Positions 12,042-38,793 of a DNA stretch of 38,793 nucleotides are shown one piece after another. Positions within the stretch are counted from its first letter, which is position 1. Every line of letters begins with the position of its first letter. This DNA comes from Acetatifactor muris (lineage in GTDB: Bacteria; Bacillota; Clostridia; Lachnospirales; Lachnospiraceae). The stretch spans positions 1 to 38,793 of the forward strand of contig JAMPFR010000030.1 in the NCBI GenBank assembly GCA_023664365.1. The letters run 5' to 3'. The notes beneath the pieces are model-generated. The model worked only from the letters and a program-made list of their open reading frames with translations. It was not told the DNA's origin and did no database searches. A program made the translations under genes and the position numbers.

Positions 12042-12092
12042 CTGTAAACAGGGATTGATTTGTCAGTTTTAAGGCTGATTTATGGGAGGTTT

Positions 12093-12800
12093 ATGATTGA
12101 TTTTAGTAAATTGCCATTAGGGAGCAGTCTGCATAATCTACTGGACGGAATAAGAATTGACTTTGCGTTCCAGGCAATCCTCAATGCAGCGACAATGGAG
12201 GTTGCCGGATATGAGGCACTTATGAGGCCGGAGGGAATGACACCTTTTGCACTGATTGAACGGTGCAGGGAGGAAAACAGCCTGCATACGCTGGAGCTTG
12301 CGACATTCATCGGGGCAACAAAGGCATTTCTTGACAAAGGGTTGCAGGGGTTTGTGTCCATCAATTCGCTTCCGTCCGAGTGCCTCACGCCAGAGGAATC
12401 GGGAATCTATTTTAAGTGTTTTCCGAACTTGTCGGAGCGTCTTTATGTCGAGATACTGGAATACACGGACTTGAATTTAGACAAATGGCTGATGAAGAAA
12501 GGGCAGATCAGGTCGCACGGTATGAAGGTTGCCGTTGATGATTATGGTTCCGGCAATAATTTCATGCTGGCTGTCAACCTGTTTGAGCCGGATATCATTA
12601 AGACTGACAGAAAGTTGATTGCGGGGATTCATAATGATATCCCCATGCAGGAGCATTTCATCAGGATGATAGAGCGCTTTCACGAGCGCGGGAGTGTGGT
12701 TATTGCGGAGGGCGTGGAATGCCTGGAGGAATTTGACTTCTTGCGGACAACAAAGGTTGATTATCTGCAGGGCTTTTATTTGGGGCGTCCCCAAATGTAG
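12093..12800 (+). CDS. Stand-alone EAL-domain c-di-GMP phosphodiesterase
   Basis: This 235-residue cytosolic protein starts at ATG 12093 with GGGAGG at 12084-12089; an in-frame TTG at 12060 lacks such a site. The whole protein is one EAL domain. It has the YEALMRP signature, the metal-binding Asn in INSLPSE, the EILE pair, DDYGSG (loop 6), IIKTDR, IAEGVE and the terminal LQGFYLGRP. All residues normally needed for cleavage of cyclic di-GMP to pGpG therefore appear present. There is no GGDEF, PAS or membrane sensor, so it is either constitutive or controlled by expression. It sits between topB and the giant helicase gene in the transfer operon and could lower c-di-GMP in cells entering transfer. 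Confidence 0.88.
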   Translation: MIDFSKLPLGSSLHNLLDGIRIDFAFQAILNAATMEVAGYEALMRPEGMTPFALIERCREENSLHTLELATFIGATKAFLDKGLQGFVSINSLPSECLTPEESGIYFKCFPNLSERLYVEILEYTDLNLDKWLMKKGQIRSHGMKVAVDDYGSGNNFMLAVNLFEPDIIKTDRKLIAGIHNDIPMQEHFIRMIERFHERGSVVIAEGVECLEEFDFLRTTKVDYLQGFYLGRPQM

Positions 12801-24341: not shown

Positions 24342-24363
24342 AGAGTGAGAGGAGGTGGAACGC

Positions 24364-25815
24364 ATGGCAGTTTCAAGCTTGCTTCCGAGAAAAGCAAAGG
24401 GGAACCAGACACGGAGCCAGACGCTGCAGACGCGGTTTGAATACGATGAGGCAGAAGAAAAGACCGGGGGCGGAAAATTTATCACATCCTATATGTGCAG
24501 CCCGGAAACAGCGGCGGAGGAATTTGAGATGAGCAAGCTGATCTATGAATCTGCCACCGGGAGAAGCCAGCCGAAGGAAAAAGATATCATCGCTTACCGC
24601 ATTATCCAGTCTTTTAAGCCGGGAGAAATCACGCCGGAGGAAGCGAACAAGATAGGATATGAGCTTGCCATGAGATTCACTAAGGGCAGGCATCAGTTTT
24701 TTGTTGCCACCCATACGGACAAGGCGCACATCCACAACCATATCGAATTTAACAGCACCAATTTGGAGTGCGACGGGAAATTCAATAACTTCAAAAATTC
24801 TTCCATTGCCTTACGGCGGCTGAATGATGAAATCTGCCGGGAGCATGGCTGTTCAGTGATTGAAAAACCGGGGGCAAGGCGTCAGCAGTTTGCGGAAAAA
24901 GGGGCAGCGAAGCGGGGGGCAAGCTTCAAAGAGCATCTGCGTATTGACATAGACAATGCGCTGTCCGGCTGTAAAGACTTTGAGGAATTCTTGGCTCGTA
25001 TGAGAGCGGAGGGGTATGAGATCAGACGGCGCGGGAAGTCTCTGGAGTTTAAGGCACAGGGGCAGGAAAGATACAGGCGCTCCTACCGGCTGGGGGAAGC
25101 TTATTCGGAAGAAGCGCTGCGGGGAAGGATTGCGGGCACCTGGAAAGCGCAGCGGGATGAGGAACCGAAAAAATCCAGGGGGAACGGTGAGAGGGAAGCG
25201 AAAAAGAAGCAAGCGGATCATGGCAGGCGGGTCAATCTTCTGGTGGATATTCAGGCAAAGATACAGGCAGGAAAGGGCAAGGGATATGAACGGTGGGCGA
25301 AGGTTTTCAACCTGAAAGAAGCCGCAAAGACCCTTAATTTTCTCACGGAGAACGGTGTGGAGGATTATGGGGAACTTGTGGCAAGGGCGGAATTGGCGGG
25401 AAAGAAATTTGATGAACTGTCTGCCCGCATCAAGCGCCTGGAGGGACGCATGGCGGAGATTACCCGGCTTAAAAACCATATCATCAACTATTCAAAGACG
25501 CGGGAAATTTATAAAGAATACAAGAGATCCCGCAACCAGAAAGCATACCGGGCGGAACACGCGGAGGAGATCGAAAAGCATGAAGCGGCGAAGGCTGCCT
25601 TTGACGCTTTGGGAGGGAAAACGATTCCGAAGGTGGCGCAGCTTAACGAGGAATATACAAAGCTGCTGGCGGAGAAAAAGGCGTGTTATGAGGAATACAA
25701 GAAGGCCAGGCAGGATATGATCGATTATCAAACTGCCCGTGCGAATGTGGATAAAATCTTGGGAACGCCCGCCCAAGGACAGGAGGAAAAGAGGGAGCAG
25801 AGGGCGGAACACTGA
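24364..25815 (+). CDS. MOBP-type relaxase (MobA/VirD2-like)
   Basis: This 483-residue relaxase starts at ATG 24364, eight bases after GGAGG; the in-frame GTG at 24355 is part of that site. The N-terminal third carries the FITSYMCSPETA segment. The three-histidine metal motif is HTDKAHIHNH (H117, H122, H124, H126), within HIHNHIEFNS. Together these are the hallmark of MOBP enzymes that nick oriT and stay covalently bound to the 5' end. Residues 185-235 resemble a small DNA-binding domain, and the rest is a long charged coiled coil. The gene is followed by a strong terminator and the oriT candidate, so it ends the mobilization operon. Confidence 0.92.
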   Translation: MAVSSLLPRKAKGNQTRSQTLQTRFEYDEAEEKTGGGKFITSYMCSPETAAEEFEMSKLIYESATGRSQPKEKDIIAYRIIQSFKPGEITPEEANKIGYELAMRFTKGRHQFFVATHTDKAHIHNHIEFNSTNLECDGKFNNFKNSSIALRRLNDEICREHGCSVIEKPGARRQQFAEKGAAKRGASFKEHLRIDIDNALSGCKDFEEFLARMRAEGYEIRRRGKSLEFKAQGQERYRRSYRLGEAYSEEALRGRIAGTWKAQRDEEPKKSRGNGEREAKKKQADHGRRVNLLVDIQAKIQAGKGKGYERWAKVFNLKEAAKTLNFLTENGVEDYGELVARAELAGKKFDELSARIKRLEGRMAEITRLKNHIINYSKTREIYKEYKRSRNQKAYRAEHAEEIEKHEAAKAAFDALGGKTIPKVAQLNEEYTKLLAEKKACYEEYKKARQDMIDYQTARANVDKILGTPAQGQEEKREQRAEH

Positions 25816-26284: not shown

Positions 26285-26313
26285 TGGAAAAAGTCACAAA
26301 TAATTGATATAAT
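26285..26313 (+). promoter_or_regulatory. Extended -10 promoter of the first defence operon
   Basis: TGGAAA (4/6), a 17-base spacer, then a perfect TATAAT preceded by TGA (TGn extension). Transcription would start near 26320, giving a leader of about 77 bases ahead of the first cargo gene. Confidence 0.65.
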
Positions 26314-26396
26314 ATCAGTTAAAGGATTTGTGGGATGTAGTGGATTGCTAAGCCAGATTTATTAACCATATAGAAAAATGAAATGAGAATGAGATT

Positions 26397-29024
26397 ATGT
26401 ATAAACAGGATTCATTTGCAATTACATATGGTGTAGATCCGATAGAATATGCAGAAGATGAAATAGAGACTGCTAATTTTTCTGTTCGCACTTTTGGCAG
26501 ATTAAAAAATAGTGGTGTTGATACTGTGGCGGATTTGTTGCAAAAAACCGAAGTAGATTTGCTATCCATCAAAGGATTTGGCAGAAACAGTTATGATGAG
26601 GTAATCAAGTTTATAAAAACATTACACCAGAGCACGAATGGCAATAACCGGAAAACTAAGGTAATCCGTAGGCAGCCATATTGGGCTCGTGAGCAGAGGG
26701 AATTACTCTTTGCCGGACAATTTGATGAATTGGAGTCGGAGTATTTTGAAAAAGATGGAGATTATATTGATAGCTTACGAGAAGCCTATGAAGTGCTTGG
26801 TGCAGATATAATAGAAGAGATACATAGAAACTCTTTGAGTGTACTTGAGTATGAGCGTACCTTCAGAGATTATTATTATAAAATGGACAGACTTTTTACT
26901 CAGAGAAATGAAGTAAAGAGAAGTCTGGAGCAAATTACGGAAGTTAAGATTAACAAACAGGTACATCCTTATATTTGGGCTTTCCCAGCTCATACGGAAG
27001 TATGTGAACAGCTATATTCCGTGTGCGCGGGTGAAAAAGCCACATTTGAGGACTTGAGAAAAATCGATCTGGAAGATTATGATACGGCAGTTTTGCTCAT
27101 TAAATTCCTGAAATGGTGTCAGTTTGACTTGGAAAATGAATATGAGGAATACTGGAATAGTCATAGGGATCGGGATAGGGTCGAAGATATAATACGGCTC
27201 CGCTCAAACCGCAGCACATTGGAGGAAGTTGGGAATATTTATGGAATCACCAGAGAGAGAATCAGGCAGATAGAGGCAAAATCAGTCAGAAAATTTAGGG
27301 TATGGGAGAAAAATCATAATTTCCTCGCTAAAGTGGCTGCTGAATGCGGCTGTTGCTCAGTCATACCTTTTAAGCTGATAAAAGAGATTTTGGGTGATAA
27401 TGGGGATGTCATAATCTATTTGCTACGTCTCACGAATAGTAGTCATTATTATGTGGATATAGACCTTGAGGTTGTAGTCCGAGATGATTTTGATTATAGC
27501 GTAAGGATTCAAAAATATGTTGATATGCTGCCGGAGGTGTTCAATGTGCGTGAACTGCCAGCATGGATACAGGAACTTCCTGAGAGAATACCGGAAGAAA
27601 TATTGCTAAGAGCAGTTGAATTACAATATCGACTTACCGGTGATACTTATCACAGGAGCCGTTTGTCTGTGGGGCTTATGTGTGAGCATGTACTTAGAAC
27701 ATATTATCCGGAGGGGTTGCACATATATGATGATAAAGAGATTGAGGGTTTTAGAAACCACATTTATCAGGATTATGGCGATGTAAAGATATCCGATACT
27801 CATCGTGCTTTGATTGCCAGAATAAGCGATGTTGGCGTACTATGTGGACGCGGCAGGTATAAGAGTAAGCAGGAGGAATATTTATCTTCTGATCTATATG
27901 AAGATATCAGCAGGTACATAGAGGATAGCAGTGATACTATATTCTTGATCAATACGATTTTTACCGTGTTTGAAGATGAATTGAGAGCTGAGGGGATTGA
28001 TAATAAATACTATTTGCAGGGTGTGTTGAAGGAACTGTTTGGTGACAGATATTACTTTAGAAGAGATTATATTTCCAAAGACGCAGACTTGACTTCCATT
28101 TACAGCGCGATAATCAGATATATAAAGAATTCTCTTGCGCCAGTCTCAAAAGCAGAAATATTTGATGCATTTCAAGGGCTAACAGAGATTGTACTAAATT
28201 TTGCGGTCAACGATTCGGAGGTGTTGAATTATTTTGGAACCTATATCCATGCGGATAATGTAAAGATTTATGAAGAGGATTATTCCTATGTGAAGCAAGT
28301 TGCTGACAAATTACTTTCAAAGAACGATGTGCTCCATTCTAAGGATTTTTTTGACTATATTAAGGCTGACAATTCTGAGTTTATTGAAAGAACAGGTGCA
28401 ACATATCCTTACAGGCTGTTCAGTCTTTTGGAGTATATGCTGTCCGAAGATTATCAATTTGCCAGACCTTATATTGCCAAGATAGATACCGTAATAGACC
28501 GTCCTATGGAACGATTTCAGGAACTGCTTGACCAACAGGATGTAACAGAAATTCAGGAATTACTGAATCTTGCCAGCGAGTGCCGGTTTACAATGATAGG
28601 ACTTTTAGATTTCCTGAATACGTTCTCGGATACACATTTCATTCTTGATAAAGAGCATTTGATAAAAATTTCTGCTACCGGAATTGATGAAACCATTGCC
28701 AAAAGGATTGAATCTCTTATTTTGAATGAGATTTCAGGGACGAAGGTGATCTCTCAATTAAGATGCCGGGAGCAATTTCCTGAAATACAGGTTAGCTGGG
28801 AAGAATGGCTTATATTCAGCATGATAGATAAGTGGAGCGAATCTTTGGAGGTTGGATTGACTACCCGTGCGTTTAAGGATGCAGTTGCGCTGGTTGCACC
28901 AGCAGGCAGGATGAATCCAGATGAATTTTCAGATGTTCTGGCGACAACAAAGTATAAAACGGACGATCTTGATAATATTGATGACCTGATCGCTGATATC
29001 ATAGAGGAAGAAATAGAGGTATAG
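26397..29024 (+). CDS. Alpha-CTD-like plus sigma-70 region-4-like defence protein
   Basis: This 875-residue protein starts at ATG 26397 with only a weak ribosome site. Residues about 25-78 (FSVRTFGRLKNSGVDTVADL, then LLSIKGFGRNSYDEV) match the helix-hairpin-helix C-terminal domain of the RNA polymerase alpha subunit. Residues about 265-300 (RSTLEEVGNIYGITRERIRQ) match sigma-70 region 4, including the recognition helix. The other ~550 residues are helical, acidic and unfamiliar. No polymerase-binding region 2 or 3 is visible, so this is not a working sigma factor. It may use these folds to bind DNA within the phosphorothioate-linked module it leads. It is AT-rich compared with the ICE backbone. 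Confidence 0.8.
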   Translation: MYKQDSFAITYGVDPIEYAEDEIETANFSVRTFGRLKNSGVDTVADLLQKTEVDLLSIKGFGRNSYDEVIKFIKTLHQSTNGNNRKTKVIRRQPYWAREQRELLFAGQFDELESEYFEKDGDYIDSLREAYEVLGADIIEEIHRNSLSVLEYERTFRDYYYKMDRLFTQRNEVKRSLEQITEVKINKQVHPYIWAFPAHTEVCEQLYSVCAGEKATFEDLRKIDLEDYDTAVLLIKFLKWCQFDLENEYEEYWNSHRDRDRVEDIIRLRSNRSTLEEVGNIYGITRERIRQIEAKSVRKFRVWEKNHNFLAKVAAECGCCSVIPFKLIKEILGDNGDVIIYLLRLTNSSHYYVDIDLEVVVRDDFDYSVRIQKYVDMLPEVFNVRELPAWIQELPERIPEEILLRAVELQYRLTGDTYHRSRLSVGLMCEHVLRTYYPEGLHIYDDKEIEGFRNHIYQDYGDVKISDTHRALIARISDVGVLCGRGRYKSKQEEYLSSDLYEDISRYIEDSSDTIFLINTIFTVFEDELRAEGIDNKYYLQGVLKELFGDRYYFRRDYISKDADLTSIYSAIIRYIKNSLAPVSKAEIFDAFQGLTEIVLNFAVNDSEVLNYFGTYIHADNVKIYEEDYSYVKQVADKLLSKNDVLHSKDFFDYIKADNSEFIERTGATYPYRLFSLLEYMLSEDYQFARPYIAKIDTVIDRPMERFQELLDQQDVTEIQELLNLASECRFTMIGLLDFLNTFSDTHFILDKEHLIKISATGIDETIAKRIESLILNEISGTKVISQLRCREQFPEIQVSWEEWLIFSMIDKWSESLEVGLTTRAFKDAVALVAPAGRMNPDEFSDVLATTKYKTDDLDNIDDLIADIIEEEIEV

Positions 29025-29027
29025 ATT

Positions 29028-31070
29028 ATGGCAAATTATCGTGAAATCCCGTTGCAGCACAGCTATATCAGCTGCGGTGAGACGAATATAGCAAATTCCT
29101 TTTTGAATCCGGTCTTAGGACACACGAAGCTGTATAAAAGGAGTGTTGGTTTTTTCTCATCCAGTGTATTCTCACTTATAAAAGAGGGGATTGTGAAGCT
29201 TGCAAGAAATAAGGGAGAAATACGCCTGATAGCATCTCCGCGTTTGAGTCAGGAGGATATACAGGCGATCCAGATGGGATATGATAAGAGAGAGAAGATT
29301 GTTTCGGATAGTTTTTCGAGGGACTTTGTTGAAAAACTTGATGAGTTAAAGGAAGAAGAACTGCTGTTGCTGGTAGATTTGATTGCAAAAGGTTTTTTGG
29401 ACATAAAGATTGCGGTGTCGAAAACGGATGGGTTTTATCATGATAAGCTGGGAATTTTGGAAGATATGGAAGGAAATAAAATTGCTTTCTATGGTTCATC
29501 TAATTCCAGTCTGAACGGTTATCAAAATAACTATGAGAAAATTAGGATTGCAAGAAGCTGGATACATGGGGAAGAGGACAGTGTGGAGGATGAACAGAAT
29601 GAATTTGATGCACTCTGGTCTAAGACGCATCCATTTGTTACGGTATATGATTATAAGGACACTGCAAAAGATAATATTCTGCAGGTCATAGAGAAGAAAA
29701 AGAGTAATAAAAATTCAACTGGAATCAGACTCAGGGATTATCAGGAAGATGCAATCAGGGCGTGGGTGAATAATGGGTATCACGGTTTCTATGTGATGGC
29801 TACCGGTACTGGTAAGACATGGACGGCTATTTACTCGGCGCGGGAGCTTATCAAGGAGCATCCCGCAACCATCGTTATCTGTGCCCCATATAAGCATTTA
29901 GTGAAACAGTGGGCGGAGGATGTCGAAAAGGCTTTCCCCAATGCAAATATTGTAATGGTCTTTTCAGAAAATCCAACGTGGGATAAGCAGATTACGGATG
30001 AAACTGTGAAGATGAAGTATCATCCGGAAACGCAGCTGATTGTAATTTCTACGATAGCTTCATTCGGCTCAGATAGATTCGGGGCAGTATTCCCTAAAAT
30101 ACCTGGGGAAAAATTGCTCATAGTGGATGAAGCGCACAGATTTACCAACAGAGATGATAGCTTAAAGAATGAATACCAGTATATGCTTGGATTAAGCGCA
30201 ACTCCATTTAGCGGAAAATCTGCTGAAAGAGGAAGGAACCTGATGGAATTCTTTGGCGGGCAGGTGTTCAGCCTTGCGATAGAAGAGGCTTTGGAACGTG
30301 GATTTTTGGTTCCTTATAATTATTATCCGATATATGTGTATGCCAATGATGAAGAAGAATCTAAATTCCAATACCATACACAGAGAATCCTGTCCTGTTT
30401 TAAGAATGGAGTTTGTATTGACCCTGAACAGCTGGCTAAATCGCTACGAAACCGTCTTCGGGTGATAGCAATGGCTGAAGAGAAACAGTCCAGGATTCAT
30501 GATATAATCAATCATGTGGCAGAGAAAGACCATGTGGTGGTCTATTGCGGAGATGGCAGGCAGTATGACTCTAATGGGGAAGAAGTCAGGCATATTCGAG
30601 CTGTGAAAGGCGTTTTGTCTGAACACGACTATAAGGCAAGTCAGTTTACTGCATCAGAGAATATGATGCAGCGGATGCAGCTTGTAGATGCATTCAACAA
30701 GGGTGAAATATCAGCGCTGGCAGCTATCAGGTGTCTGGATGAGGGTATCAATATCCCGTCCATAAAGAGTGCATTGATTTTAGCCAGTAATGATGATTAC
30801 AGGGAGTTTGTCCAGCGAAGAGGTCGTATCCTCAGACTATATGATGGTAAGAAATTTGCAAATATCTATGATGTGATTGTACTTCCTTCCAATAATTTGA
30901 AAGCATGGGCACTGATTGAACTGCGAAGATTCCGCGAATACGCTAAGCTGGCGCTTAATGCCGATGAAAAATTGGACGAGTTAGAGGATTTGATGATTCA
31001 ATATGGTTGCACGATGGAAGAGATAGATGTATACGATTATGATGAAATGGAGGCAGAGTTAGATGAGTAG
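29028..31070 (+). CDS. PLD-like nuclease fused to a DEAD/DEAH helicase
   Basis: This 680-residue protein starts at ATG 29028, three bases after the previous stop. Residues 1-200 form a phospholipase-D-like domain with one HDK motif (FYHDKLGILED) and the GSSNSSLNGYQNNYE segment typical of helicase-linked PLD nucleases. The superfamily 2 helicase core follows. It has ATGTGKTWTA (Walker A, about residue 262), VDEAHRF (Walker B), LSATPF (motif III) and QRRGRILRL (motif VI, near the end). Such fusions occur in type III-like and defence restriction enzymes, where they translocate on and cut DNA. Here the target may be DNA lacking phosphorothioate; that is inference from the neighbouring dnd genes. 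Confidence 0.88.
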   Translation: MANYREIPLQHSYISCGETNIANSFLNPVLGHTKLYKRSVGFFSSSVFSLIKEGIVKLARNKGEIRLIASPRLSQEDIQAIQMGYDKREKIVSDSFSRDFVEKLDELKEEELLLLVDLIAKGFLDIKIAVSKTDGFYHDKLGILEDMEGNKIAFYGSSNSSLNGYQNNYEKIRIARSWIHGEEDSVEDEQNEFDALWSKTHPFVTVYDYKDTAKDNILQVIEKKKSNKNSTGIRLRDYQEDAIRAWVNNGYHGFYVMATGTGKTWTAIYSARELIKEHPATIVICAPYKHLVKQWAEDVEKAFPNANIVMVFSENPTWDKQITDETVKMKYHPETQLIVISTIASFGSDRFGAVFPKIPGEKLLIVDEAHRFTNRDDSLKNEYQYMLGLSATPFSGKSAERGRNLMEFFGGQVFSLAIEEALERGFLVPYNYYPIYVYANDEEESKFQYHTQRILSCFKNGVCIDPEQLAKSLRNRLRVIAMAEEKQSRIHDIINHVAEKDHVVVYCGDGRQYDSNGEEVRHIRAVKGVLSEHDYKASQFTASENMMQRMQLVDAFNKGEISALAAIRCLDEGINIPSIKSALILASNDDYREFVQRRGRILRLYDGKKFANIYDVIVLPSNNLKAWALIELRRFREYAKLALNADEKLDELEDLMIQYGCTMEEIDVYDYDEMEAELDE

Positions 31071-31233
31071 TAGTCAGATTGTTCAGAATATGATTTCCTT
31101 CATCGAGGAGAAAGAGAGAGACATTCAAGCTGCTAAGGTTACCGGTGAGGTGAAAGCCAAGAGTGTTGTTGTGGATCAAATTCTGGCTGAGCTGGAAAAA
31201 CAGATGAAGGGAGACAATCATGAAGATCAGTAA
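31063..31233 (+). CDS. Small helical protein (56 residues) between helicase and ATPase genes
   Basis: ATG 31063 lies nine bases after GGAGG (31049-31053). It opens a 56-residue frame that overlaps the helicase stop by 8 bases and the next gene by 14. The product starts MSSSQIVQNMISFIEEKERD and ends in EKQMKGDNHEDQ; it is amphipathic and likely one or two helices. The overlaps and the ribosome site make this a credible gene. Without it, an unusual 149-base non-coding gap would interrupt a tightly packed operon. It may bridge the helicase and the ATPase. Confidence 0.72.
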   Translation: MSSSQIVQNMISFIEEKERDIQAAKVTGEVKAKSVVVDQILAELEKQMKGDNHEDQ

Positions 31234-33178
31234 ACTTGAATATGAGAACTTCCGAAATTTTAAGGGGCATGGTGAGATAAAATGTTCCACCGATGGCAAA
31301 GTTACAATCATTTACGGCAAAAATGGTGATGGCAAGACTACTATGCATCAGCTGTTTCAGTGGGTATTTTATGGCAGGGTTCATTTTAATAGGACAACAA
31401 CCGACACGCTATATAACCTATCCTTTGAAAGAGAGCAGCCTTACGGGTCTACCTTTATCGTTATGGGAAGGATTGATTTTGAGCATGATGGTCATTACTA
31501 TTCCTTGACCCGAACCTGTACGTTCAAAAAGGGGTTGGATGATTCGTCTAAGGTGTCAGAAGAATTGCAGTTAAACCACAAGGATGAAGAGGATAATTGG
31601 ATCCGGATGGATAAGCCCAAGGATATCATAGAGAAATTTCTTCCGTCCGGTTTATCGGAATATTTCTTTTTTGATGGCGAAAGCATGATTGCCGACCTTC
31701 GGGTAAAGGGAAAGGATTCTGCCGGAAAGCTGAGGACAGCTCTGTATTCGATGTTTGATCTGGATGTTATTGAATCTGCCCTTGAGCATATCGGAAGGAC
31801 AGATTTGAAGACAACGGTTTTAGGACAGTTGTTTATCAGCAGAGGTGAAAATGTTCAGACAGGTGAAATTTCTGCTGTAAGGACCAATATAGAAAACGCA
31901 CAGCAGAAGATTAAGGATTACGAGGAAAAACTGAGTGCCTTGAAACAGGAGAAAGAAGAGAAGAAAGAGCTGATAACCAGTATTTCAGAAAAAATAGGGA
32001 CGACAAAATCAAGGCAGGAGTATGAATCACAGAGGAAGGAATTAAAGAGACAGCGGGATTTAGTTTTGAATAATGTCGGGATTGCACAGCGGGATTTTGG
32101 GGATGCGGTCATTGATAATTTCCCACAACTTCTCATTTCAAAAGCGGTGGCAGATGCAAAGGGGAAGATTAATCTTAAGATTGAAAAGAATCATCTCCCT
32201 CACGGCCTGAGTAAACGCTTGGTTGCTTATTTGCTTGCAATGTCAACCAAGGAATGTATCTGCGGTAATCCGTTATGTGATGCTGAAAGGGCTAAAATTA
32301 GGGAGTATGAGACGATGATGCCGCCCAAATCCTATACCAGTCTGTATAATGATTTTACACGGACCGCAGAGCTCTGGGGCAGGGGTTATGACAAGGAAAA
32401 ACTGGAAAGCTATGTAAAGCAGGTTTTTGATAATACGGAACATGCCCACAAGTGTGATATACAGATCCATAATCTTGACGAAGAAGAGAAAAACAGCCCG
32501 GATGTTGAGGATCTGATCGTTGATAGACAGAATGCTGAGAACCGGATTTCTGAAATTGATGATGATATTGTAAAAGGCACTAAGGAATTAGATAAATTTA
32601 ATATTTATCTAAAAAGACAGATGAAGGAATATGAAACTCTGACCGGGCAGTTGGAAGGTAATGAGATAATTAACAAAAAAATTGAGATTATGGAGGCTGT
32701 GCGAAACTACTTTGAAGGTTTGCTTAGCGAGGCTGCGGACAAATACAGTAAGAAATTGCAGGAAAACATACAGGATTTGATTAACAAGATGCTTACCAGC
32801 AAAAGATATGCCAAGGTCAGCCCGGAATTCTCTGTAAGGGTGGAAGACAGCAATGGTGATGAGTCCAAATCAGAGGGACAGTTTGCGGTAGTATCCTTTG
32901 CGTACATTGGCGGTATCCTAAAAATGCTCAAGGATGATGACAAGCTTTCTTCCAAGGAATATCCGCTGATTTTGGACGGCCCGTTTTCAAAGCTTGACTC
33001 GGATCAGCGGCAGAATGTCATAAATGTAATTCCTAAATTTGCTCCGCAAGTGATCCTGTTTTCCAAAGATAATTTGCAGGATTATTTTGAAGAGAATTCC
33101 ATTGGAAGGGTATGGACACTTGTAAGTAACGATGAGAAAAATATTGCGTCAGTAGAGGAGGGATTTTTATGGAACTGA
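31220..33178 (+). CDS. SMC/DndD-like AAA ATPase of the first defence operon
   Basis: This 652-residue ATPase starts at ATG 31220 with GGGAG upstream. It has Walker A YGKNGDGKTT (residues 32-41), FFFDGE near 150 (as in DndD), and a coiled coil from about 215 to 290. A CxC...C knuckle (ECICGNPLC, about 343) at the hinge resembles a zinc hook. A second coiled coil follows, and Walker B PLILDGPFSKLD lies near 583. The layout is that of SbcC/Rad50-like ATPases and DndD. It is a distant relative of the true DndD encoded later in the same cluster, so the element carries two different SMC-like ATPases. It may sense or clamp DNA for the PLD helicase. Confidence 0.85.
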   Translation: MKISKLEYENFRNFKGHGEIKCSTDGKVTIIYGKNGDGKTTMHQLFQWVFYGRVHFNRTTTDTLYNLSFEREQPYGSTFIVMGRIDFEHDGHYYSLTRTCTFKKGLDDSSKVSEELQLNHKDEEDNWIRMDKPKDIIEKFLPSGLSEYFFFDGESMIADLRVKGKDSAGKLRTALYSMFDLDVIESALEHIGRTDLKTTVLGQLFISRGENVQTGEISAVRTNIENAQQKIKDYEEKLSALKQEKEEKKELITSISEKIGTTKSRQEYESQRKELKRQRDLVLNNVGIAQRDFGDAVIDNFPQLLISKAVADAKGKINLKIEKNHLPHGLSKRLVAYLLAMSTKECICGNPLCDAERAKIREYETMMPPKSYTSLYNDFTRTAELWGRGYDKEKLESYVKQVFDNTEHAHKCDIQIHNLDEEEKNSPDVEDLIVDRQNAENRISEIDDDIVKGTKELDKFNIYLKRQMKEYETLTGQLEGNEIINKKIEIMEAVRNYFEGLLSEAADKYSKKLQENIQDLINKMLTSKRYAKVSPEFSVRVEDSNGDESKSEGQFAVVSFAYIGGILKMLKDDDKLSSKEYPLILDGPFSKLDSDQRQNVINVIPKFAPQVILFSKDNLQDYFEENSIGRVWTLVSNDEKNIASVEEGFLWN

Positions 33179-33669
33179 CTTCTGATATCCCATTGAGGGG
33201 AGATGCTTGGGATCGCGCCCTGAAAGAACTTGGTACGATATTTAGTACGAGAACAAATTATAGCCTGTTTCTGCTCAGTTGTTCTATCGGGATCATGTAT
33301 GACCAGAGGATAGAGAAACCGGAAGAAAAGACTATAGCAGAGGAACATTCTGTTCCGAGAAATGTCATTCATAACAATGATAACGGTAAACTTGATTTGA
33401 TGTTACAGGCAGCTATTTTATCGACGACGACGGTTGATTTTACTGAGGATGAACGGCTTGAGATTGCTTTTGGAGATTCCACGGATTTTAATAAGAGAGA
33501 CTTTCTGGTTCAGTTTGCTAATTATGGCGTAACTAAATTGGTTGAACAGATTGGCGTAACGGAACTGGAAACAATGGAGAATATTAAGAATTTTCTTTGT
33601 ACTTCTGTAGAGGGAAGGAATTTTGATATTGACAGCTTGCCGGATGAAATACTCCTCATGGACGAGTAA
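33169..33669 (+). CDS. Hypothetical protein closing the first defence operon
   Basis: This 166-residue, mostly helical acidic protein starts at ATG 33169, overlapping the ATPase stop by 10 bases. It contains STRTNYSLFLLSCSIGIMYDQ near residues 25-45 and a DFTEDERLEIAFGDSTDFNK segment in the middle. I do not recognise the family. Its size, place after an SMC-like ATPase and helical N-terminus loosely recall DndE after DndD, but no sequence identity is evident. It is followed at once by the terminator/promoter element that begins the dnd operon. Confidence 0.75.
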   Translation: MELTSDIPLRGDAWDRALKELGTIFSTRTNYSLFLLSCSIGIMYDQRIEKPEEKTIAEEHSVPRNVIHNNDNGKLDLMLQAAILSTTTVDFTEDERLEIAFGDSTDFNKRDFLVQFANYGVTKLVEQIGVTELETMENIKNFLCTSVEGRNFDIDSLPDEILLMDE

Positions 33670-33673
33670 TGTA

Positions 33674-33702
33674 TTGACAAAACGCCCCTACTTAAGTATA
33701 CT
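33674..33702 (+). promoter_or_regulatory. Near-consensus sigma-A promoter of the dnd operon
   Basis: Perfect TTGACA (33674-33679), a 17-base spacer and TATACT (33697-33702, 5/6). This is the strongest promoter in the window. Transcription would start near 33709, inside the palindrome, about 30 bases before dndB. Confidence 0.75.
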
Positions 33703-33723
33703 ACTTAAGTAGGGGCGTTTTTT
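33679..33723 (+). terminator. 20-bp perfect hairpin terminator between the defence operons
   Basis: A 20-bp perfect stem with a 3-base TAC loop (33679-33698 with 33702-33721) is followed by a T-run and preceded by an A-run. It can therefore end transcripts from the first defence operon, and in principle transcripts from the right too. It shares its bases with the dnd promoter. Confidence 0.8.
33689..33711 (+). promoter_or_regulatory. Double palindrome overlapping the dnd -10 box, likely operator
   Basis: Two copies of the self-complementary decamer TACTTAAGTA are separated by TAC. The right copy starts at the last base of the -10 box and covers the predicted start of transcription. A dimeric repressor bound here would block RNA polymerase. 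DndB, encoded just downstream, is reported to repress dnd transcription in other bacteria by binding a palindrome at its own promoter, which makes it the first candidate. Confidence 0.55.
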
Positions 33724-33738
33724 GAAAGGAAATATACG

Positions 33739-34815
33739 ATGAATTATAAATATCAGTTTCCTGTTGTGAAGGGAAAGCAGTCTGGACGAGAATACTATAT
33801 TGCTATGGTTCCATTAGGGATGTTAAATAGATTATTTGGTGAAGATAATGAGTATGTTCCGCCAGAATATAGAGCGCAAAGAAAATTGAATGAAGCAAGG
33901 ATTCCAGAGATAAAAAAATATATTCTTCATAACAGGGAAACCTATGTCTTTTCAGCATTGGCAGCGTCTATAGATGGTAAACATACTTTTATTTCAGCTG
34001 ATAATGGTGAATTGGGAACATTGGAAGTTGATATGGATGCCAAATTTCTTATCAATGATGGGCAGCATAGAAAAGCGGCGATTTTGGCAGCATTGGAAGA
34101 GGCTCCGGAATTGGCTGAGGAAACTATTTCGGTTGTTTTTTACGAGGATCGGGGATTGGAAAGAAGTCAGCAAATGTTTACTGATTTGAATAAACATGCT
34201 GTGAAAACTTCTAATTCCATTGCTGAGTTGTATGATTCCCGCGATTCCTTAGCAGTGGCTACAAGGAACGTGATTTCGGAAAATCCGTTTTTAGATGAAT
34301 ATGTTGATAAGGAGAAGGATATACTTGGCAAATTTTCTTCTTCACTTTTCACATTGAGCACATTTTATAATGCAAATAGAAGGATTCTGCGAAGGAATAA
34401 TTGTGACGAAGAGTTTCAGGCTTTCATTAAGGAGTTTTGGGATCAAGTGGTTGAACATATGCCCCCTTGGAAAGAAATAACGGAAAAACAGCTTTCTAAG
34501 GTTGATTTGAGAGAACAGTATATTGCTTCGCAGGCTGTGGTGATACAGGCATTAGGTAAACTGGGGGCTTATTTGTACGATAATTCACGCGAAGATTTAA
34601 GTGTTTTGAAGGGTTTGGAAAAGATTAACTGGAAAAGAAGCAATTCGGTGTGGAAGCTTAGGGTTATACGAAACAACGGACGTATGATAAACAGTGAGAA
34701 AGCTATTTCTTTGGCTGTAATAGCTATCAAAAATATGCTCGGAATTGATTTGCTGGAGGATGAGGTATTTGAAGAGGATAGCTTTAAGGATACAGTGCTA
34801 AACGGAGAAAAATAA
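33739..34815 (+). CDS. dndB: DndB, DGQHR-domain protein of DNA phosphorothioation
   Basis: This 358-residue protein starts at ATG 33739 behind GAAAGGA. It contains the diagnostic DGQHR motif (residues 107-111, FLINDGQHRKAAIL) followed by FTDLNKHAVKTSNS, as in the DndB/DGQHR family. DndB is not needed for sulfur insertion. In other species it tunes the frequency of phosphorothioation and represses the dnd operon. It is the first gene of the operon, next to the palindromic promoter. Length matches the family. The gene is AT-rich like the rest of the cargo. It ends one base before dndC. Confidence 0.9.
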   Translation: MNYKYQFPVVKGKQSGREYYIAMVPLGMLNRLFGEDNEYVPPEYRAQRKLNEARIPEIKKYILHNRETYVFSALAASIDGKHTFISADNGELGTLEVDMDAKFLINDGQHRKAAILAALEEAPELAEETISVVFYEDRGLERSQQMFTDLNKHAVKTSNSIAELYDSRDSLAVATRNVISENPFLDEYVDKEKDILGKFSSSLFTLSTFYNANRRILRRNNCDEEFQAFIKEFWDQVVEHMPPWKEITEKQLSKVDLREQYIASQAVVIQALGKLGAYLYDNSREDLSVLKGLEKINWKRSNSVWKLRVIRNNGRMINSEKAISLAVIAIKNMLGIDLLEDEVFEEDSFKDTVLNGEK

Positions 34816-34816
34816 G

Positions 34817-36196
34817 ATGAACAATTCAGTATTCCCGGAATGTAAGGAAATCATTGAGGAAATGAAACTTGTGTATACACATGATTCAAGACCTTGGCTG
34901 GTAGGATTTAGCGGTGGTAAGGATTCAACCTTATTATGCTGCCTGATATTTGAAATGTTAAAGACGCTGAAGGCGGAACAGATTAATAAGAAAGTGTATA
35001 TTATTTCTTCCGATACGATGGTTGAGAATCCTATTGTGAAGAAATATATGCATGAAATGAATTCTCTGATTGGGGAATATGGTAAAGGGTATTTGATTGA
35101 AAGTAAGGTCATATATCCGGAAATAGAGAAAACATTCTGGTCCTGCCTGATTGGATTAGGCTATCCTACACCGGAGCCTCCGGGTTTCAGGTGGTGTACC
35201 GACAAATTAAAAATCCAACCTCTGAACAACTTTGTTACGGATACCATCAATAGCAATGGTGAAGTTGTGATGCTTCTGGGGGTTAGAAAAGCTGAAAGCA
35301 GTTATCGGGCAAGGGGAATCAAAAACAGGGAAATTGAAGGGAAACTTCTGATACCACATACGGATATAAAGAATGCATATGTATATAACCCCCTCACGGA
35401 ATTGCCAAATGAAAAGATATGGAATTATTTGTTAAGTGGGGACGCGCTTACGCCTTGGCATTCTGATAATAAATATCTCTTTTCGCTTTATCAGGGGGAA
35501 GAACTTGGAGAAGAACAGAGTGCTCTTGGACAGGTGGATGAGAATAAAATGGCTGTCACCGGGAATTCCAGGTTTGGCTGTTGGATCTGTACAATGGTAA
35601 AAGAGGATAAGTCCCTTAAAAGATTTATTGATAATGGGGAAACGTGGCTTATACCTCTCAGAGACTTTAGAAACTGGCTTATGGAAATTAGAAACAGTCC
35701 TCAGTATAGGGAAAGAAAGAGAAGAAATGGGGCAGTATATGTAAGGAATGACGGTGAGCTTGGCTTTGGCTCATTTAGCATGGCAGCACGAAGGGAAATT
35801 CTTGAAAGGCTGTTACAGTTGGAAGTAGATACAGGGTTAGAGCTGATATCGATAGATGAACTGCGGGCGATTGATAAAATGTGGGAAGATGAGGGTGATT
35901 TGAACAGGCGGACGCTTGTGGATCTGTATTTCCGGATTAAAGGGGAGAAACTTCCATGGGATGAATATAGGCAGCCGCTGTTCTCTGAGGATGCGTTTGA
36001 GATTATTCAGGATACCTGCAGAAAGTATGGAATAGAATATGAGATGCTTTGCAAGCTGGTGGTAACTGTGGAGAATAACAAGCACTATACGAGAGGTCAG
36101 AAGGTCAATAAGGCATTTGATAGGATTGTAAATGAAGGTTGGCTCCATTTTGACAATATAAAAAAGGCGAAAGAAGTAATGACTGATGAGAATTGA
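34817..36196 (+). CDS. dndC: DndC, PAPS-reductase-like sulfurtransferase
   Basis: This 459-residue protein starts at ATG 34817. The PP-loop SGGKDS (residues 32-37) binds and hydrolyses ATP. Cysteines in RWCTDKLK (about 127) and GCWICTMVK (about 255) are candidate ligands of the 4Fe-4S cluster. VRKAESSYRARG is also typical of this family. DndC activates DNA and takes sulfur from the cysteine desulfurase to replace a non-bridging backbone oxygen. No dndA is present, so a host IscS-like enzyme is presumably the donor. The stop overlaps the dndD start by 11 bases, which couples their translation. Confidence 0.95.
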   Translation: MNNSVFPECKEIIEEMKLVYTHDSRPWLVGFSGGKDSTLLCCLIFEMLKTLKAEQINKKVYIISSDTMVENPIVKKYMHEMNSLIGEYGKGYLIESKVIYPEIEKTFWSCLIGLGYPTPEPPGFRWCTDKLKIQPLNNFVTDTINSNGEVVMLLGVRKAESSYRARGIKNREIEGKLLIPHTDIKNAYVYNPLTELPNEKIWNYLLSGDALTPWHSDNKYLFSLYQGEELGEEQSALGQVDENKMAVTGNSRFGCWICTMVKEDKSLKRFIDNGETWLIPLRDFRNWLMEIRNSPQYRERKRRNGAVYVRNDGELGFGSFSMAARREILERLLQLEVDTGLELISIDELRAIDKMWEDEGDLNRRTLVDLYFRIKGEKLPWDEYRQPLFSEDAFEIIQDTCRKYGIEYEMLCKLVVTVENNKHYTRGQKVNKAFDRIVNEGWLHFDNIKKAKEVMTDEN

Positions 36197-38330
36197 GAAG
36201 ATTATCCTATATAATTTTGGTTCTTATTTGGGTGAAAATATATTTGACCTATGTTCGCTGAATTCCTCCAATGGGAAGGTAGTATTGATTGGCGGCAAGA
36301 ATGGCGCAGGTAAAACTACGCTGTTCTCCGGTATCAAGCTTGCGTTGTATGGGTATAGGGCGTCAGGGTACCAAAATCTGAATTCCCACTACAGGAAAGA
36401 AGTAAAAAAATTCTTTAATGATGCAGCCAGATATGATATGTCTGAAAATTGTTATGTTGAAGTATCGCTGAAAATGTCAAATGGGCAAACGGAAGACGAA
36501 TATATATTGCGCAGGCAGTGGAATGTATTATCAGAGAAGTTGGAAGAGTTTGAGAATTTTAGCATATTTAAGAATGGAATTGAGTTAGATGAGGAGGAAC
36601 AGTCTGATTTTGACAATTATCTGCTCAATATCATTCCGCCCGAACTGTTTGATATGTTTTTCTTTGATGGGGAGCAGATAGCTGATTATTTTCTTGGTGA
36701 CGATGGCAGTGAGAAGGTCAGAAATGCTTTTATGATTCTCTGTGGATATGACACATTCGATATCATAGAGCGAAATTTCAGGCGTATTACATACGGAAAA
36801 AAGGGAACTGTAGTAAACAGCACAGAGTATTTGGATTTAAGAGATCAGAAAGAGGAACTGGAGAGAGAATTGTCGAAACTCAATGAAGAGGTTTCGGACG
36901 TACAGGATTCAATCGATATGTACAAAGCGGGACTGGTAAAACTTGATAAAGCGTACAGATTGTCTGGCGGAATCTTGCAGGAGGAACTAAATAGGAAGCT
37001 TGTGCTGCTTAAGGAGGAGGAACATTTTAGGGAAGAACAAAATAGCTTACTAAAGAAGATGGCAAATGAGGAAATCCCGTTTATTATTGTTCACAATTTG
37101 CTTCAAAGGTTGGAAAGGCAGATTGAGGATGAGACGGACAAGCAAAAATTAGAGATTCTGCAGGACTCATTGGTTCGTCTGTTGCCTGGCGTTTTGAAGA
37201 ATGTGTATCAGAAATTGGAATGGCATGACGATGATGAACTTACGCAGCTTGTAATAGATGAAATGGCATCAGAAGCCGAAAAGAATAGCAGCACTCATAC
37301 GCAGGAAATTCTGCGCCTTTCCGCAGATGACAGTCGGCATTTGCGTCAAATGATTGCGCGTTATTTGAATATTTCCAGAGAAGATGTAATCACGGCGGAA
37401 CATGAACTGAAAGCATCGTTGGTAAGAAGTCAGAAATTGCGGGAAGAGATTGATAAGAGTCACGTTGAAGGGGCGGATGATTATTTGAAAGAGCGGGTTG
37501 AGTTGACCGCAAAAATTGATAAAGGTACCGAGCGGAGAGTTGAACTTTCTGAGATTATTCAAAAAAAGAGCATTGAGTTACAGGAAGTTGTCGTTTTATC
37601 AAAACGAGCTGAAAAGAAGCTGGATGAAGAATTAAAAAACCAGTCAATAATTGATCTTTCACAGAAGTCGGTGGCTTTTCTTTCCGAACTGCAACAGCGT
37701 TTATATTCCAGTGAGATAGAAAAAGTGGAACGGCTGTTCATGAAGAAGATTAAACAGCTTGCAAGAAAGACGAATTTTATTGATAAAATTCTTATAGATT
37801 CATATTTTAATGTGCATATATATAAGAATGTGGTATATGAGGCTCGCCAGATTGTAAAACGTGTCAATAGTATGGGGATTGAGAAATACTTGCAGGAATA
37901 CGGAGAAGTGCATTGTGAGAGTATTCTCCAGAATACAAAATGTTCCGATATGCCAGAATTCGTTTCAAAGTATGCAGACAGCTCCAAAATGATTGAGTGT
38001 TTACAGGAGATAGAAAAATCAAGACTTTCAAAAGGTGAAAAGCAGGTGTTTATCATGTCTTTGTACTGGGCATTGGTTCAGCTGAGTAATCATGAGGTTC
38101 CTTTTGTTATAGACACACCATTTGCAAGGATTGATACTGAGCATAGATCCAATATAACAAAAAACTTTTTTATGGATCTGCAGGGACAGGTATTTATTTT
38201 TTCAACCAATGAGGAAATCGTTGGAGAGAATTATAAGGTTATTTCAAAAGATATTAAAGCGAAATTTATCTTGGAAAACCTTGATAATACCAGAACTTTA
38301 GTAACACCTAATAAATACTTCGGAGAATAA
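36186..38330 (+). CDS. dndD: DndD, SMC-like ATPase of DNA phosphorothioation
   Basis: This 714-residue ATPase starts at ATG 36186, inside the end of dndC. Walker A is GGKNGAGKTT (residues 36-45). FFFDGEQIADYF lies near 160, and long coiled coils span about 215-300 and 405-480. The ABC-type signature LSKGEKQ is near 615 and Walker B PFVIDTPFARID near 639. DndD works with DndC and DndE, probably opening or nicking the DNA for sulfur insertion. It differs from the ATPase of the first defence operon in length, hinge and overall sequence, although both share the KNGxGKTT loop and the FFFDGE motif. Confidence 0.94.
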   Translation: MRIEKIILYNFGSYLGENIFDLCSLNSSNGKVVLIGGKNGAGKTTLFSGIKLALYGYRASGYQNLNSHYRKEVKKFFNDAARYDMSENCYVEVSLKMSNGQTEDEYILRRQWNVLSEKLEEFENFSIFKNGIELDEEEQSDFDNYLLNIIPPELFDMFFFDGEQIADYFLGDDGSEKVRNAFMILCGYDTFDIIERNFRRITYGKKGTVVNSTEYLDLRDQKEELERELSKLNEEVSDVQDSIDMYKAGLVKLDKAYRLSGGILQEELNRKLVLLKEEEHFREEQNSLLKKMANEEIPFIIVHNLLQRLERQIEDETDKQKLEILQDSLVRLLPGVLKNVYQKLEWHDDDELTQLVIDEMASEAEKNSSTHTQEILRLSADDSRHLRQMIARYLNISREDVITAEHELKASLVRSQKLREEIDKSHVEGADDYLKERVELTAKIDKGTERRVELSEIIQKKSIELQEVVVLSKRAEKKLDEELKNQSIIDLSQKSVAFLSELQQRLYSSEIEKVERLFMKKIKQLARKTNFIDKILIDSYFNVHIYKNVVYEARQIVKRVNSMGIEKYLQEYGEVHCESILQNTKCSDMPEFVSKYADSSKMIECLQEIEKSRLSKGEKQVFIMSLYWALVQLSNHEVPFVIDTPFARIDTEHRSNITKNFFMDLQGQVFIFSTNEEIVGENYKVISKDIKAKFILENLDNTRTLVTPNKYFGE

Positions 38331-38334
38331 TAAT

Positions 38335-38712
38335 ATGCAATTCAGATTAAAAACGTCTAAAAGAACGCAGGATATTTATGAGGCAATTTATCAGAGAGAG
38401 TATTTACAGCCATTTGCGCTCTCTAAGATCTCCATCAGCTTGGCTTTGAGAAGTGGATATAATTCAGCTGAGGATGATACTGTTTATGATGTAAATGGTC
38501 TTGACCTAAACAGGCAGACTATCACCAGCGATAATGATCTACTTTTTAAGGCCTTGATAGAAGTAAATGAGGAAAGGCATATTTCGGAAGAGGAGTATTT
38601 TCCGGAGGTAGTAAAAAAATACATTGATTATGGAGCGATTCTGCTGGAGCAGGAATACAGGTATAGTCGAGAAATTTATAGTCATTTGGTGAATTTGGAC
38701 GCAGGTATTTGA
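38335..38712 (+). CDS. dndE: DndE, small DNA-binding protein of phosphorothioation
   Basis: This 125-residue helical protein starts at ATG 38335, four bases after dndD, with GGAG upstream. The segments LKTSKRTQDIYEAIY and ALSKISISLALRSGYN fit DndE, whose members form a small positively charged surface that binds nicked double-stranded DNA. Identification rests strongly on its position after dndBCD and on its length. The segment YSREIYSHLVNLDAGI closes the protein. It ends one base before another ATG, so the operon goes on. Confidence 0.87.
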   Translation: MQFRLKTSKRTQDIYEAIYQREYLQPFALSKISISLALRSGYNSAEDDTVYDVNGLDLNRQTITSDNDLLFKALIEVNEERHISEEEYFPEVVKKYIDYGAILLEQEYRYSREIYSHLVNLDAGI

Positions 38713-38713
38713 C

Positions 38714-38793
38714 ATGGCTGGTTGGAATCTAAAGAGTGGAATCTTAACTGAATACTGTACCAGTGAGGAAAGAATTTGGTCTTTGCTTAATTA
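38714..38793 (+). CDS. Start of a further gene in the dnd operon (partial, unidentified)
   Basis: ATG 38714 lies one base after the dndE stop and the frame stays open for 26 codons to the window edge (MAGWNLKSGILTEYCTSEER...). Such tight spacing means it belongs to the dnd operon. Too little is visible to name it. A further phosphorothioation-linked gene would be expected here. Confidence 0.6.
   Translation, partial: MAGWNLKSGILTEYCTSEERIWSLLN

What the first reader, a model, noticed from the sequence alone, without database searches (positions are those of the whole stretch)
26285..38793. Phosphorothioation genes coupled to a non-DndFGH effector operon on an ICE
dndBCDE is plainly present. 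The neighbouring operon, where bacterial systems usually carry dndFGH, instead encodes an alpha-CTD/sigma-4-like protein, a PLD-helicase, a 56-residue protein, an SMC/DndD-like ATPase and a 166-residue protein. From memory, a four-gene module (PbeABCD) that blocks virus replication without cutting DNA accompanies DndCDEA in haloarchaea and is said to occur in other lineages. This operon may be a Firmicutes version or a new type. The presence of a PLD-type nuclease-helicase would matter, because Pbe is reported not to degrade DNA.
Basis: partly seen in the sequence, partly recalled or inferred. Interest (0 to 1): 0.9.

Follow-up and report, generated by a model that had tools for sequence, protein, structure and literature searches.

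The report
Phage-defence operon with promoter-binding-like protein
A mobile element in a bacterium carries a known kind of phage defence that probably marks the cell's own DNA with sulphur, and its effector half starts with an extra gene built from pieces that resemble the cell's transcription machinery; related genes also head a different sulphur-based defence, so this looks like a shared part that I did not find described.

Summary
The effector genes are the known PbeABCD module: PbeA (PLD, ResIII, helicase; 29028-31070; PADLOC E 5.8e-201), a 56-aa PbeB-position gene, PbeC (31220-33178) and a PbeD-position gene, followed by dndBCDE (33739-38712), on a conjugative-type element. It is not DndFGH. 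A PLD domain does not set it apart: the founding haloarchaeal PbeA has one. Unusual is the first gene (26397-29024, 875 aa, here 'SIG'): RNA-polymerase alpha-CTD, sigma region 4, then about 560 residues matching no family shown. In 6 distinct close loci SIG precedes pbeABCD in the same order (pbeA split in one); their PbeC form one clade (100/100), while dnd modules differ or are missing. A context-free profile search of 398 genomes of the phylum gave 11 SIG-family loci: 5 directly before pbeA, 5 heading BREX type 4 operons (another phosphorothioate system), 1 with neither. SIG is optional: 4 of 16 PbeA-positive genomes. A promoter-palindrome element separates the effector and dnd units. SIG is most likely a promoter-binding regulator of the effector unit; a targeting subunit or an RNA-polymerase decoy are rivals. 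Function is inferred, not tested.

The parts
26285..26313 (+). candidate promoter P1 of SIG-pbeABCD: TGGAAA-17-TATAAT with TG before the -10; poor -35
   Evidence: a similar TGGAAA-17-TATACT with TG lies upstream of SIG in L036. Consensus match only (45 such sites found in the region scanned, 37.9 expected).
26397..29024 (+). SIG: 875-aa protein; alpha-CTD (residues 20-72), sigma region 4 (263-301), about 560 residues matching no family, acidic C-terminal tail
29028..31070 (+). PbeA: PLD (HxK...GSxN kept) + SF2 helicase
   Evidence: PADLOC PDLC02707 5.8e-201 over residues 5-648; Pfam; alignment with a haloarchaeal PbeA, L023
31063..31233 (+). PbeB-position small protein, 56 aa
   Evidence: size and place only; only chance-level family matches; relatives at the same place in L035 and L037-L042
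31220..33178 (+). PbeC: DndD-like ABC ATPase with CxC hook (C346, C348)
   Evidence: PDLC02741 2.7e-79 over residues 1-615; the two cysteines in 9 of 9 PbeC (CxC in 7, CxxC in L020 and L032), absent from the window's DndD
33169..33669 (+). PbeD-position protein, 166 aa
   Evidence: place and size; 61-66% identical in five SIG+ relatives; no family match and no profile similarity to DndE
33674..33702 (+). candidate promoter P2 of dndBCDE: TTGACA-17-TATACT
   Evidence: 11 of 12 consensus letters; mean 0.35 such sites on the + strand in 20 shuffles of 12.7 kb
33679..33721 (+). perfect 20-bp inverted repeat AAAACGCCCCTACTTAAGTA-TAC-TACTTAAGTAGGGGCGTTTT overlapping P2; candidate DndB operator and read-through terminator of pbeABCD
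   Evidence: fold z-score -6.69; core found once in the window, 0.00 expected; core kept in L039 and L041, variants in L040 and L062
33739..34815 (+). dndB
   Evidence: TIGR03233 1e-123
34817..36196 (+). dndC
   Evidence: TIGR03183 4.8e-110
36186..38330 (+). dndD
   Evidence: TIGR03185 3.2e-93
38335..38712 (+). dndE
   Evidence: PF08870 2.5e-12
24355..25815 (+). MobA/VirD2-type relaxase of the carrying element
   Evidence: PF03432 4e-33

Best explanation
This is a phosphorothioate-based defence locus of the PbeABCD kind, probably in two transcription units. Unit 2, dndBCDE, has its own promoter overlapped by a palindrome that DndB probably binds; with a cysteine desulfurase from elsewhere in the genome it marks host DNA with sulphur. 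Unit 1, SIG-pbeABCD, makes the effector: PbeC and PbeD probably scan DNA, and PbeA (helicase plus PLD domain) acts on unmarked DNA so that viral replication stops. SIG most likely is a dedicated promoter-DNA-binding protein of the effector unit. Its sigma-4 helix keeps the -35-reading residues and its alpha-CTD keeps the main DNA-contact arginine, but no match to sigma region 2 was found, so it should not open promoters alone. I propose that it acts as an activator or switch that brings RNA polymerase to the effector promoter, while the modification promoter P2 does not need it, so that marking can precede attack. Shown by computation: gene identities, order, co-inheritance, the P2/palindrome element. 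Inferred: that SIG binds DNA or RNA polymerase, that it controls the effector promoter, DndB binding, sulphur marking, and any antiviral effect.
For: PbeA and PbeC identity. SIG is the first gene, 3 bases before pbeA, and pbeA-B-C-D overlap. The same order SIG-pbeA-B-C-D in 6 of 6 distinct close loci (pbeA of L040 is split into two frames). SIG+ PbeC form one clade at 100/100. Identities of SIG track those of PbeA (r 0.93, permutation 5/720) and PbeC (r 0.92, 1/720) over 15 pairs from 6 loci. dndC is of two lineages in these loci (31-35% between, 61-86% and 70% within) and dnd is absent in L042 while SIG-pbeABCD stays, so SIG goes with the effector unit. In the sigma-4 helix TRER is kept in 14 of 16 family members and RQ in 16 of 16; the window's TRERIRQIEAK is letter for letter that of the host's own sigma factor. 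The alpha-CTD arginine is kept in 7 of 7 Pbe-type members, and the window's SVR is that of the host's RpoA. In the window P1 has a poor -35 and P2 a consensus one. Some Pbe loci paired with Ssp-type genes carry a sigma factor with regions 2 and 4 (MzaA-like) behind pbeD (L063, L064), a second use of promoter-recognition parts by Pbe.
Against: The poor -35 is not general: L039 has + strand sites TTGACG-17-TATAAT and TTGACT-17-TATGAT, and L042 TTGATA-17-TAGAAT, before SIG, while none was recognised in L038, L040 and L041; no shared operator was found before SIG. I lowered this confidence from 0.45 to 0.40 when I checked this. SIG is far larger (875 to about 1,330 aa) than an activator needs and differs much more than PbeA in the same pairs (32-38% against 62-68% in 13 of 15 pairs each). 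SIG correlates with PbeD (0.78) no better than with DndB (0.79). SIG-family genes head BREX-4 operons as well, which fits a shared working part as well as a shared regulator. Many Pbe loci have no SIG (12 of 16 PbeA-positive genomes; G258 in the window's own genus). No structure could be predicted. PbeD showed no sequence relation to DndE.
Confidence: 0.4

Rival explanations
1. SIG is a DNA-targeting or scanning subunit of the effector complex: it sits on promoter-like sites of incoming DNA and guides PbeABCD (or BREX-4 proteins) there.
For: It goes with the effector unit; the family heads both Pbe and BREX-4 operons (10 of 11 loci). BREX-2 PglW has an alpha-CTD-like domain followed by three winged helices and is described as a DNA-binding and sensing component (PMC12839542, passages read); the alpha-CTD of SIG has a weak PglW match, E 4.4e-4. 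High divergence fits an arms race.
Against: 12 of 16 PbeA-positive genomes have no SIG before pbeA; no contact between SIG and Pbe proteins was tested; promoter elements do not tell phage from host.
Confidence: 0.3
2. SIG is a guard or decoy: it shows copies of two RNA-polymerase surfaces that phages attack (alpha-CTD and sigma region 4) and releases the effector when a phage protein binds or modifies them.
For: It joins these two domains, with host-like contact residues kept, in one co-inherited effector operon; one relative has three alpha-CTD stretches (L025). That T4 AsiA binds sigma 4 and T4 Alt/ModA modify the alpha-CTD arginine is recalled, from no call.
Against: Nothing ties SIG to a phage factor; sigma 4 is only 50% and alpha-CTD 38% identical on average among Pbe-type SIGs, against 43% for the C-terminal core; the large C-terminal part is unexplained.
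Confidence: 0.12
3. SIG is an unrelated gene that hitchhikes in front of the operon.
For: It is absent from most PbeA-positive genomes sampled; in L036 it stays whole while pbe-dnd are mostly missing; L086 is a lone short copy; three of 18 loci (L043, L044, L052) have no recognised system beside them.
Against: Fixed order and tight spacing, one clade of SIG+ PbeC, parallel divergence, and 10 of 11 family loci at the head of a pbe or BREX-4 operon.
Confidence: 0.06

Closest known systems
DndCDEA-PbeABCD of haloarchaea (Xiong et al. 2019, PMC6459918) = CxC ABC-ATPase systems (Rakesh et al. 2024, PMC10853773)
   Same: PbeA domain make-up, PbeC with the two hook cysteines, small gene between A and C, gene order pbeABCD, next to PT modification genes.
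   Different: A fifth gene, SIG, in front; dndBCDE with dndB and without dndA; a promoter-palindrome before dndB. The passages and sections that I read of the two papers mention no such gene.
BREX type 4 (brxPCZL)
   Same: PT-based (PMC12839542, PMC11931770); its operons can be headed by members of the same SIG family: 6 of 18 loci (3 directly before brxP, 3 with one gene of 233-243 aa between) and 5 of 11 (4 directly, 1 with a 238-aa gene between).
   Different: BrxC, PglZ and BrxL have no counterpart among the Pbe genes. SIG is not named in the BREX-4 section of PMC12839542 (section 34 read whole; figure and supplement not seen). What share of BREX-4 loci carry SIG was not counted.
MzaA of the MZA system
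   Same: Sigma region 4 match to SIG (NCBIfam E 5.3e-11 over residues 266-304).
   Different: The match to SIG covers the sigma-4 helix only. Closer MzaA relatives (E 3.2e-47 and 6.7e-29) with region 2 stand behind pbeD in L064 and L063.
PglW of BREX type 2
   Same: alpha-CTD-like domain then winged helices (PMC12839542, passages).
   Different: PglW also has kinase and nuclease domains; none was found in SIG. That the SIG core is winged helices was not shown.
Large sigma-4-like protein before pbeA on Lactiplantibacillus plantarum plasmids
   Same: Profile match to SIG over 616 columns, sigma 4 included, probability 98.9%; same place before pbeA.
   Different: There pbeA lacks the PLD domain (455-458 aa) and the sigma-like protein is about 1,080-1,140 aa.

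Membership tests
PbeABCD | PbeA = PLD + ResIII + helicase C domains | tested here: met
   PLDc_2 1.2e-5 is just under Pfam's cut-off, but a PADLOC PbeA model matches almost full length at 5.8e-201
PbeABCD | PbeB = small protein (66 aa in the founding system) | tested here: inconclusive
   56 aa at the right place; no PADLOC match, only chance-level hits elsewhere
PbeABCD | PbeC = CxC-hook ABC ATPase | tested here: met
PbeABCD | PbeD = cognate of DndE (152 aa in the founding system) | tested here: inconclusive
   166 aa at the right place, conserved in relatives; profile comparison with DndE gives probability 0.9%; no solved relative up to E 1; structure prediction not available
PbeABCD | four genes in the order A-B-C-D as one unit, beside dnd modification genes | tested here: met
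   overlapping genes; dndBCDE 69 bases downstream. That they are one transcript is inferred
PbeABCD | blocks viral DNA replication without degrading DNA, depends on PT | not testable with these tools
   needs phage assays
DndFGH restriction module | DndF, DndG, DndH homologs | tested here: not met
   none among the matches shown for the nine proteins; DndF and DndH models find nothing in the genome (DndH model positive in 4 of 392 others; no positive control for DndF). DndG was not searched genome-wide
Dnd PT modification (dndBCDE) | DndB, C, D, E homologs in one operon | tested here: met
sigma-70 factor (for SIG) | sigma region 2 as well as region 4 | tested here: not met
   only region 4 and alpha-CTD found
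MzaA | full-length match to the MzaA model | tested here: not met
   42.1 bits against a cut-off of 800, over 39 residues

The most novel reading that the evidence does not exclude
SIG is a decoy of host RNA polymerase (alpha-CTD plus sigma 4) that two different phosphorothioate defences, Pbe and BREX-4, use as a common sensor of phage takeover of transcription and couple to the arrest of viral replication.
Probability: 0.12. Interest if true: 0.88.

Novelty: new variant of a known kind. Interest (0 to 1): 0.58.

Why it matters
PbeABCD has a disputed mechanism: replication block without cleavage (PMC6459918), or cleavage after all (PMC10853773). A fifth, co-inherited gene made of promoter-recognition parts gives a handle on how such systems are switched on or aimed. 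Finding the same family at the head of BREX type 4, another PT system said to act without a restriction endonuclease (PMC11931770, passage), points to a part that both share, and it can be tested by deleting one gene.

Tried and rejected
Rejected: a new effector type (searches show PbeA and PbeC); the PLD domain as a difference from Pbe; DndFGH; SIG as a sigma factor (no region 2 found); the palindrome before dndB as a SIG site (a variant also lies before dndB in L062, which has no SIG; one full copy in the window, and one half-site with a mismatch inside SIG). The Salmonella DndB site TACG-N10-CGTA (PMC4507180, passages) is similar in kind but not in letters.

Literature: ten searches, open-licence PMC papers only; in the listings and in the passages and sections that I read I saw no paper naming such a protein with Pbe or BREX-4. 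Yuan et al. on BREX-4 is not held, figures and supplements were not seen, and 'not in print' is not shown.

Counting notes: L037 and L038 carry near-identical loci and are counted once; L035 is identical to the window over 19,007 bases and is counted with it; L036 is broken and left out of the six close loci; L040 has pbeA in two frames and is kept. In one search, G355 matches only the helicase part and has no pbeC beside it, and G186 is cut by the contig end; both are left out of the statement on the order sample (7 of 9 used). In one search, L121 and L122 show no recognised pbeC (so 14 of the 16 are clear Pbe loci), and L119 has a 369-aa sigma-like gene about 1.5 kb from pbeD that I did not count.
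Full report
What is there. The window is one whole 38,793-base contig of a 3.86-Mb genome. From 26.4 to 38.7 kb it holds nine genes on one strand. Five form an effector unit: SIG (875 aa), then 680, 56, 652 and 166 aa; three bases separate SIG from the next gene and the other four overlap. Then come 69 bases and dndB, dndC, dndD, dndE. Upstream lie conjugation-type genes: relaxase, TraG-type P-loop protein, TrbL-like, M23 peptidase, topoisomerase, CD1107-like.

The effector genes are PbeABCD. The 680-aa protein matches a PADLOC PbeA model over residues 5-648 (E 5.8e-201) and has PLD, ResIII and helicase-C domains. The 652-aa protein matches PbeC (E 2.7e-79) and keeps the two hook cysteines that all nine PbeC in the alignment have (CxC in seven, CxxC in two) and the window's DndD lacks. 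The 56- and 166-aa genes match no family but stand where PbeB (66 aa) and PbeD (152 aa) stand in the founding system (PMC6459918, passages). Rakesh et al. call PbeD a DndE cognate (PMC10853773); my profile comparison of seven PbeD with five DndE gave a probability of 0.9%, so I could not confirm that by sequence. The founding PbeA already has the PLD domain, so its presence here is no departure. Bacterial pbeAC near dndCD are already in print. The DndF and DndH models found nothing in the genome; the DndH model finds 4 of 392 genomes of the order, none of them among the 9 with a PbeA match.

The extra gene. SIG has an alpha-CTD (residues 20-72), a sigma region 4 (263-301) and about 560 further residues without a match among those shown from Pfam, NCBIfam and PADLOC. 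A profile of 16 relatives matched 130 solved sequences up to E 1; the 60 shown are RpoA and sigma chains. In the sigma-4 helix TRER is kept in 14 of 16 relatives and RQ in all 16; TRERIRQIEAK is the same in the host's own sigma factor; the alpha-CTD shares SVR with the host's RpoA. That these residues contact promoter DNA is recalled, not from a call.

Association. A context-free scan of the genome collection (84,980 species) gave 18 loci. Their neighbours: 8 Pbe-type (L035 identical to the window, L037/L038 near-identical, L036 broken), 6 BREX-4 (L045, L046, L047, L049, L050, L051), 1 before a type IIG enzyme (L048), 3 with nothing recognised (L043, L044, L052). The 6 distinct Pbe-type loci other than L036 all have SIG-pbeA-B-C-D, with pbeA split in L040; 5 of 6 have dndBCD next. 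L042 instead has a 333-aa PP-loop protein and a cysteine desulfurase (tested on the same locus as L026). In the order sample (8 of 392 genomes, 9 loci) 4 were Pbe, 1 BREX-4, 2 of PDC-M33 type and 2 unrecognised. In a phylum sample (10 of 398 genomes, 11 loci) 5 lie directly before pbeA (the window included), 5 head BREX-4 operons (4 directly before brxP, 1 with a 238-aa gene between), and 1 has neither. The profile had been built mostly from Pbe and BREX-4 types, which favours finding those types.

The reverse count. 16 of 319 genomes had PbeA (14 with a recognised pbeC beside it). SIG stands before pbeA in 4 (window, G577, G617, G464); 2 have a sigma-like gene of 362-366 aa behind pbeD (G678, G532; weak profile match only); 10 have neither directly attached. 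In the order sample 4 of the 7 usable PbeA loci have SIG, 2 an MzaA-like sigma factor, and G258, of the window's own genus, has neither. So SIG is optional for Pbe.

One lineage. The six SIG+ PbeC form one clade with 100/100 support among 16 PbeC and 4 DndD. SIG identities track PbeA (r 0.93) and PbeC (r 0.92) over 15 pairs of 6 loci, but SIG pairs are 32-38% identical where PbeA pairs are 62-68% (13 of 15 pairs each). DndC falls into two lineages 31-35% identical. This and L042 say that SIG belongs with the effector unit and that modification units are exchanged. The correlations alone do not settle it: SIG with PbeD is 0.78 and with the three dnd genes 0.71-0.79 (10 pairs), and 6 loci are few.

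Two units. Between pbeD and dndB lies TTGACA-17-TATACT, overlapped by a perfect 20-bp inverted repeat; as RNA it folds with z -6.69, and T residues follow. The core recurs in L039 and L041, and as variants in L040 and in the SIG-less L062; L038 has only 30 bases there and no site, and L042 has no dnd. DndB binds palindromes at its own promoter in Salmonella (PMC4507180), so DndB control is likely here. Transcripts coming from pbeD could end in the hairpin, while transcripts from P2 would start inside it (inference). Before SIG the window has TGGAAA-17-TATAAT; L036 has a like site, but L039 and L042 have better -35 letters and three loci have no site, so a weak effector promoter is not a general trait.

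How it may work. dndBCDE marks host DNA; PbeABCD stops unmarked DNA; SIG acts at promoters. I favour a switch for the effector unit (0.40) over a targeting subunit (0.30), a decoy of RNA polymerase (0.12) or a passenger (0.06). Against the switch: the promoter results just named, its size, its fast change, and its sharing with BREX-4. No experiment and no structure model supports any of these.

Verdict. The locus is a member of a known kind with an extra, co-inherited part that I did not find described and that recurs in a second sulphur-based defence: a new variant of a known kind.

Noticed in passing
L063, L064, L065; L111, L112, L114, L115, L118: pbe genes stand next to Ssp-type modification genes (SspD/BrxP-like, DUF4007 = SspB, SspC, in several a cysteine desulfurase) instead of dnd: 5 of the 16 PbeA-positive genomes of the phylum sample and 3 in the order sample (families tested for L063 only; L064 and L065 look alike, L065 is cut in pbeA). 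I did not see this pairing in the passages read.
   Followed up: partly
L063:5019-6212, L064:12622-13707, L111:12562-13650, L113:12254-13354: A sigma-like gene of about 360-400 aa follows pbeD; in L063 and L064 it has regions 2 and 4 and matches MzaA. L111 and L113 were placed by a weak profile match only (38-45 bits).
   Followed up: partly
L020, L032, L034: L. plantarum plasmids carry a SIG relative of about 1,080-1,140 aa and a PbeA without the PLD domain (455-458 aa), then PbeC and PbeD.
   Followed up: partly
L042:16436-18572: SIG-pbeABCD without dndD/dndE but with a 333-aa PP-loop protein (weak SspD/BrxP match) and a DndA/SspA-like desulfurase; possibly PbeC-PbeD take part in modification.
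   Followed up: no
L036:187-3673: Relative 72% identical in the SIG core in which the stretch from within pbeA to within dndE is missing while SIG is whole; may be a deletion or an assembly fault.
   Followed up: no
L030:738-9634, L029: SIG-family gene inside a PDC-M33-type candidate defence cluster; in L030 with a type II restriction-like gene and a gene that I read as a C5 methylase (that label is mine, from no call).
   Followed up: no
L037:463-1293: Mrr-type restriction endonuclease with a weak HARE-HTH match directly before SIG.
   Followed up: no
L062:2799-3713: The SIG-less Pbe-dnd locus of the same genus has a divergent HTH-Fic gene before pbeA.
   Followed up: no
window 12060-12800: EAL-domain protein between the topoisomerase gene and a 2,978-aa open frame on the element.
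   Followed up: no
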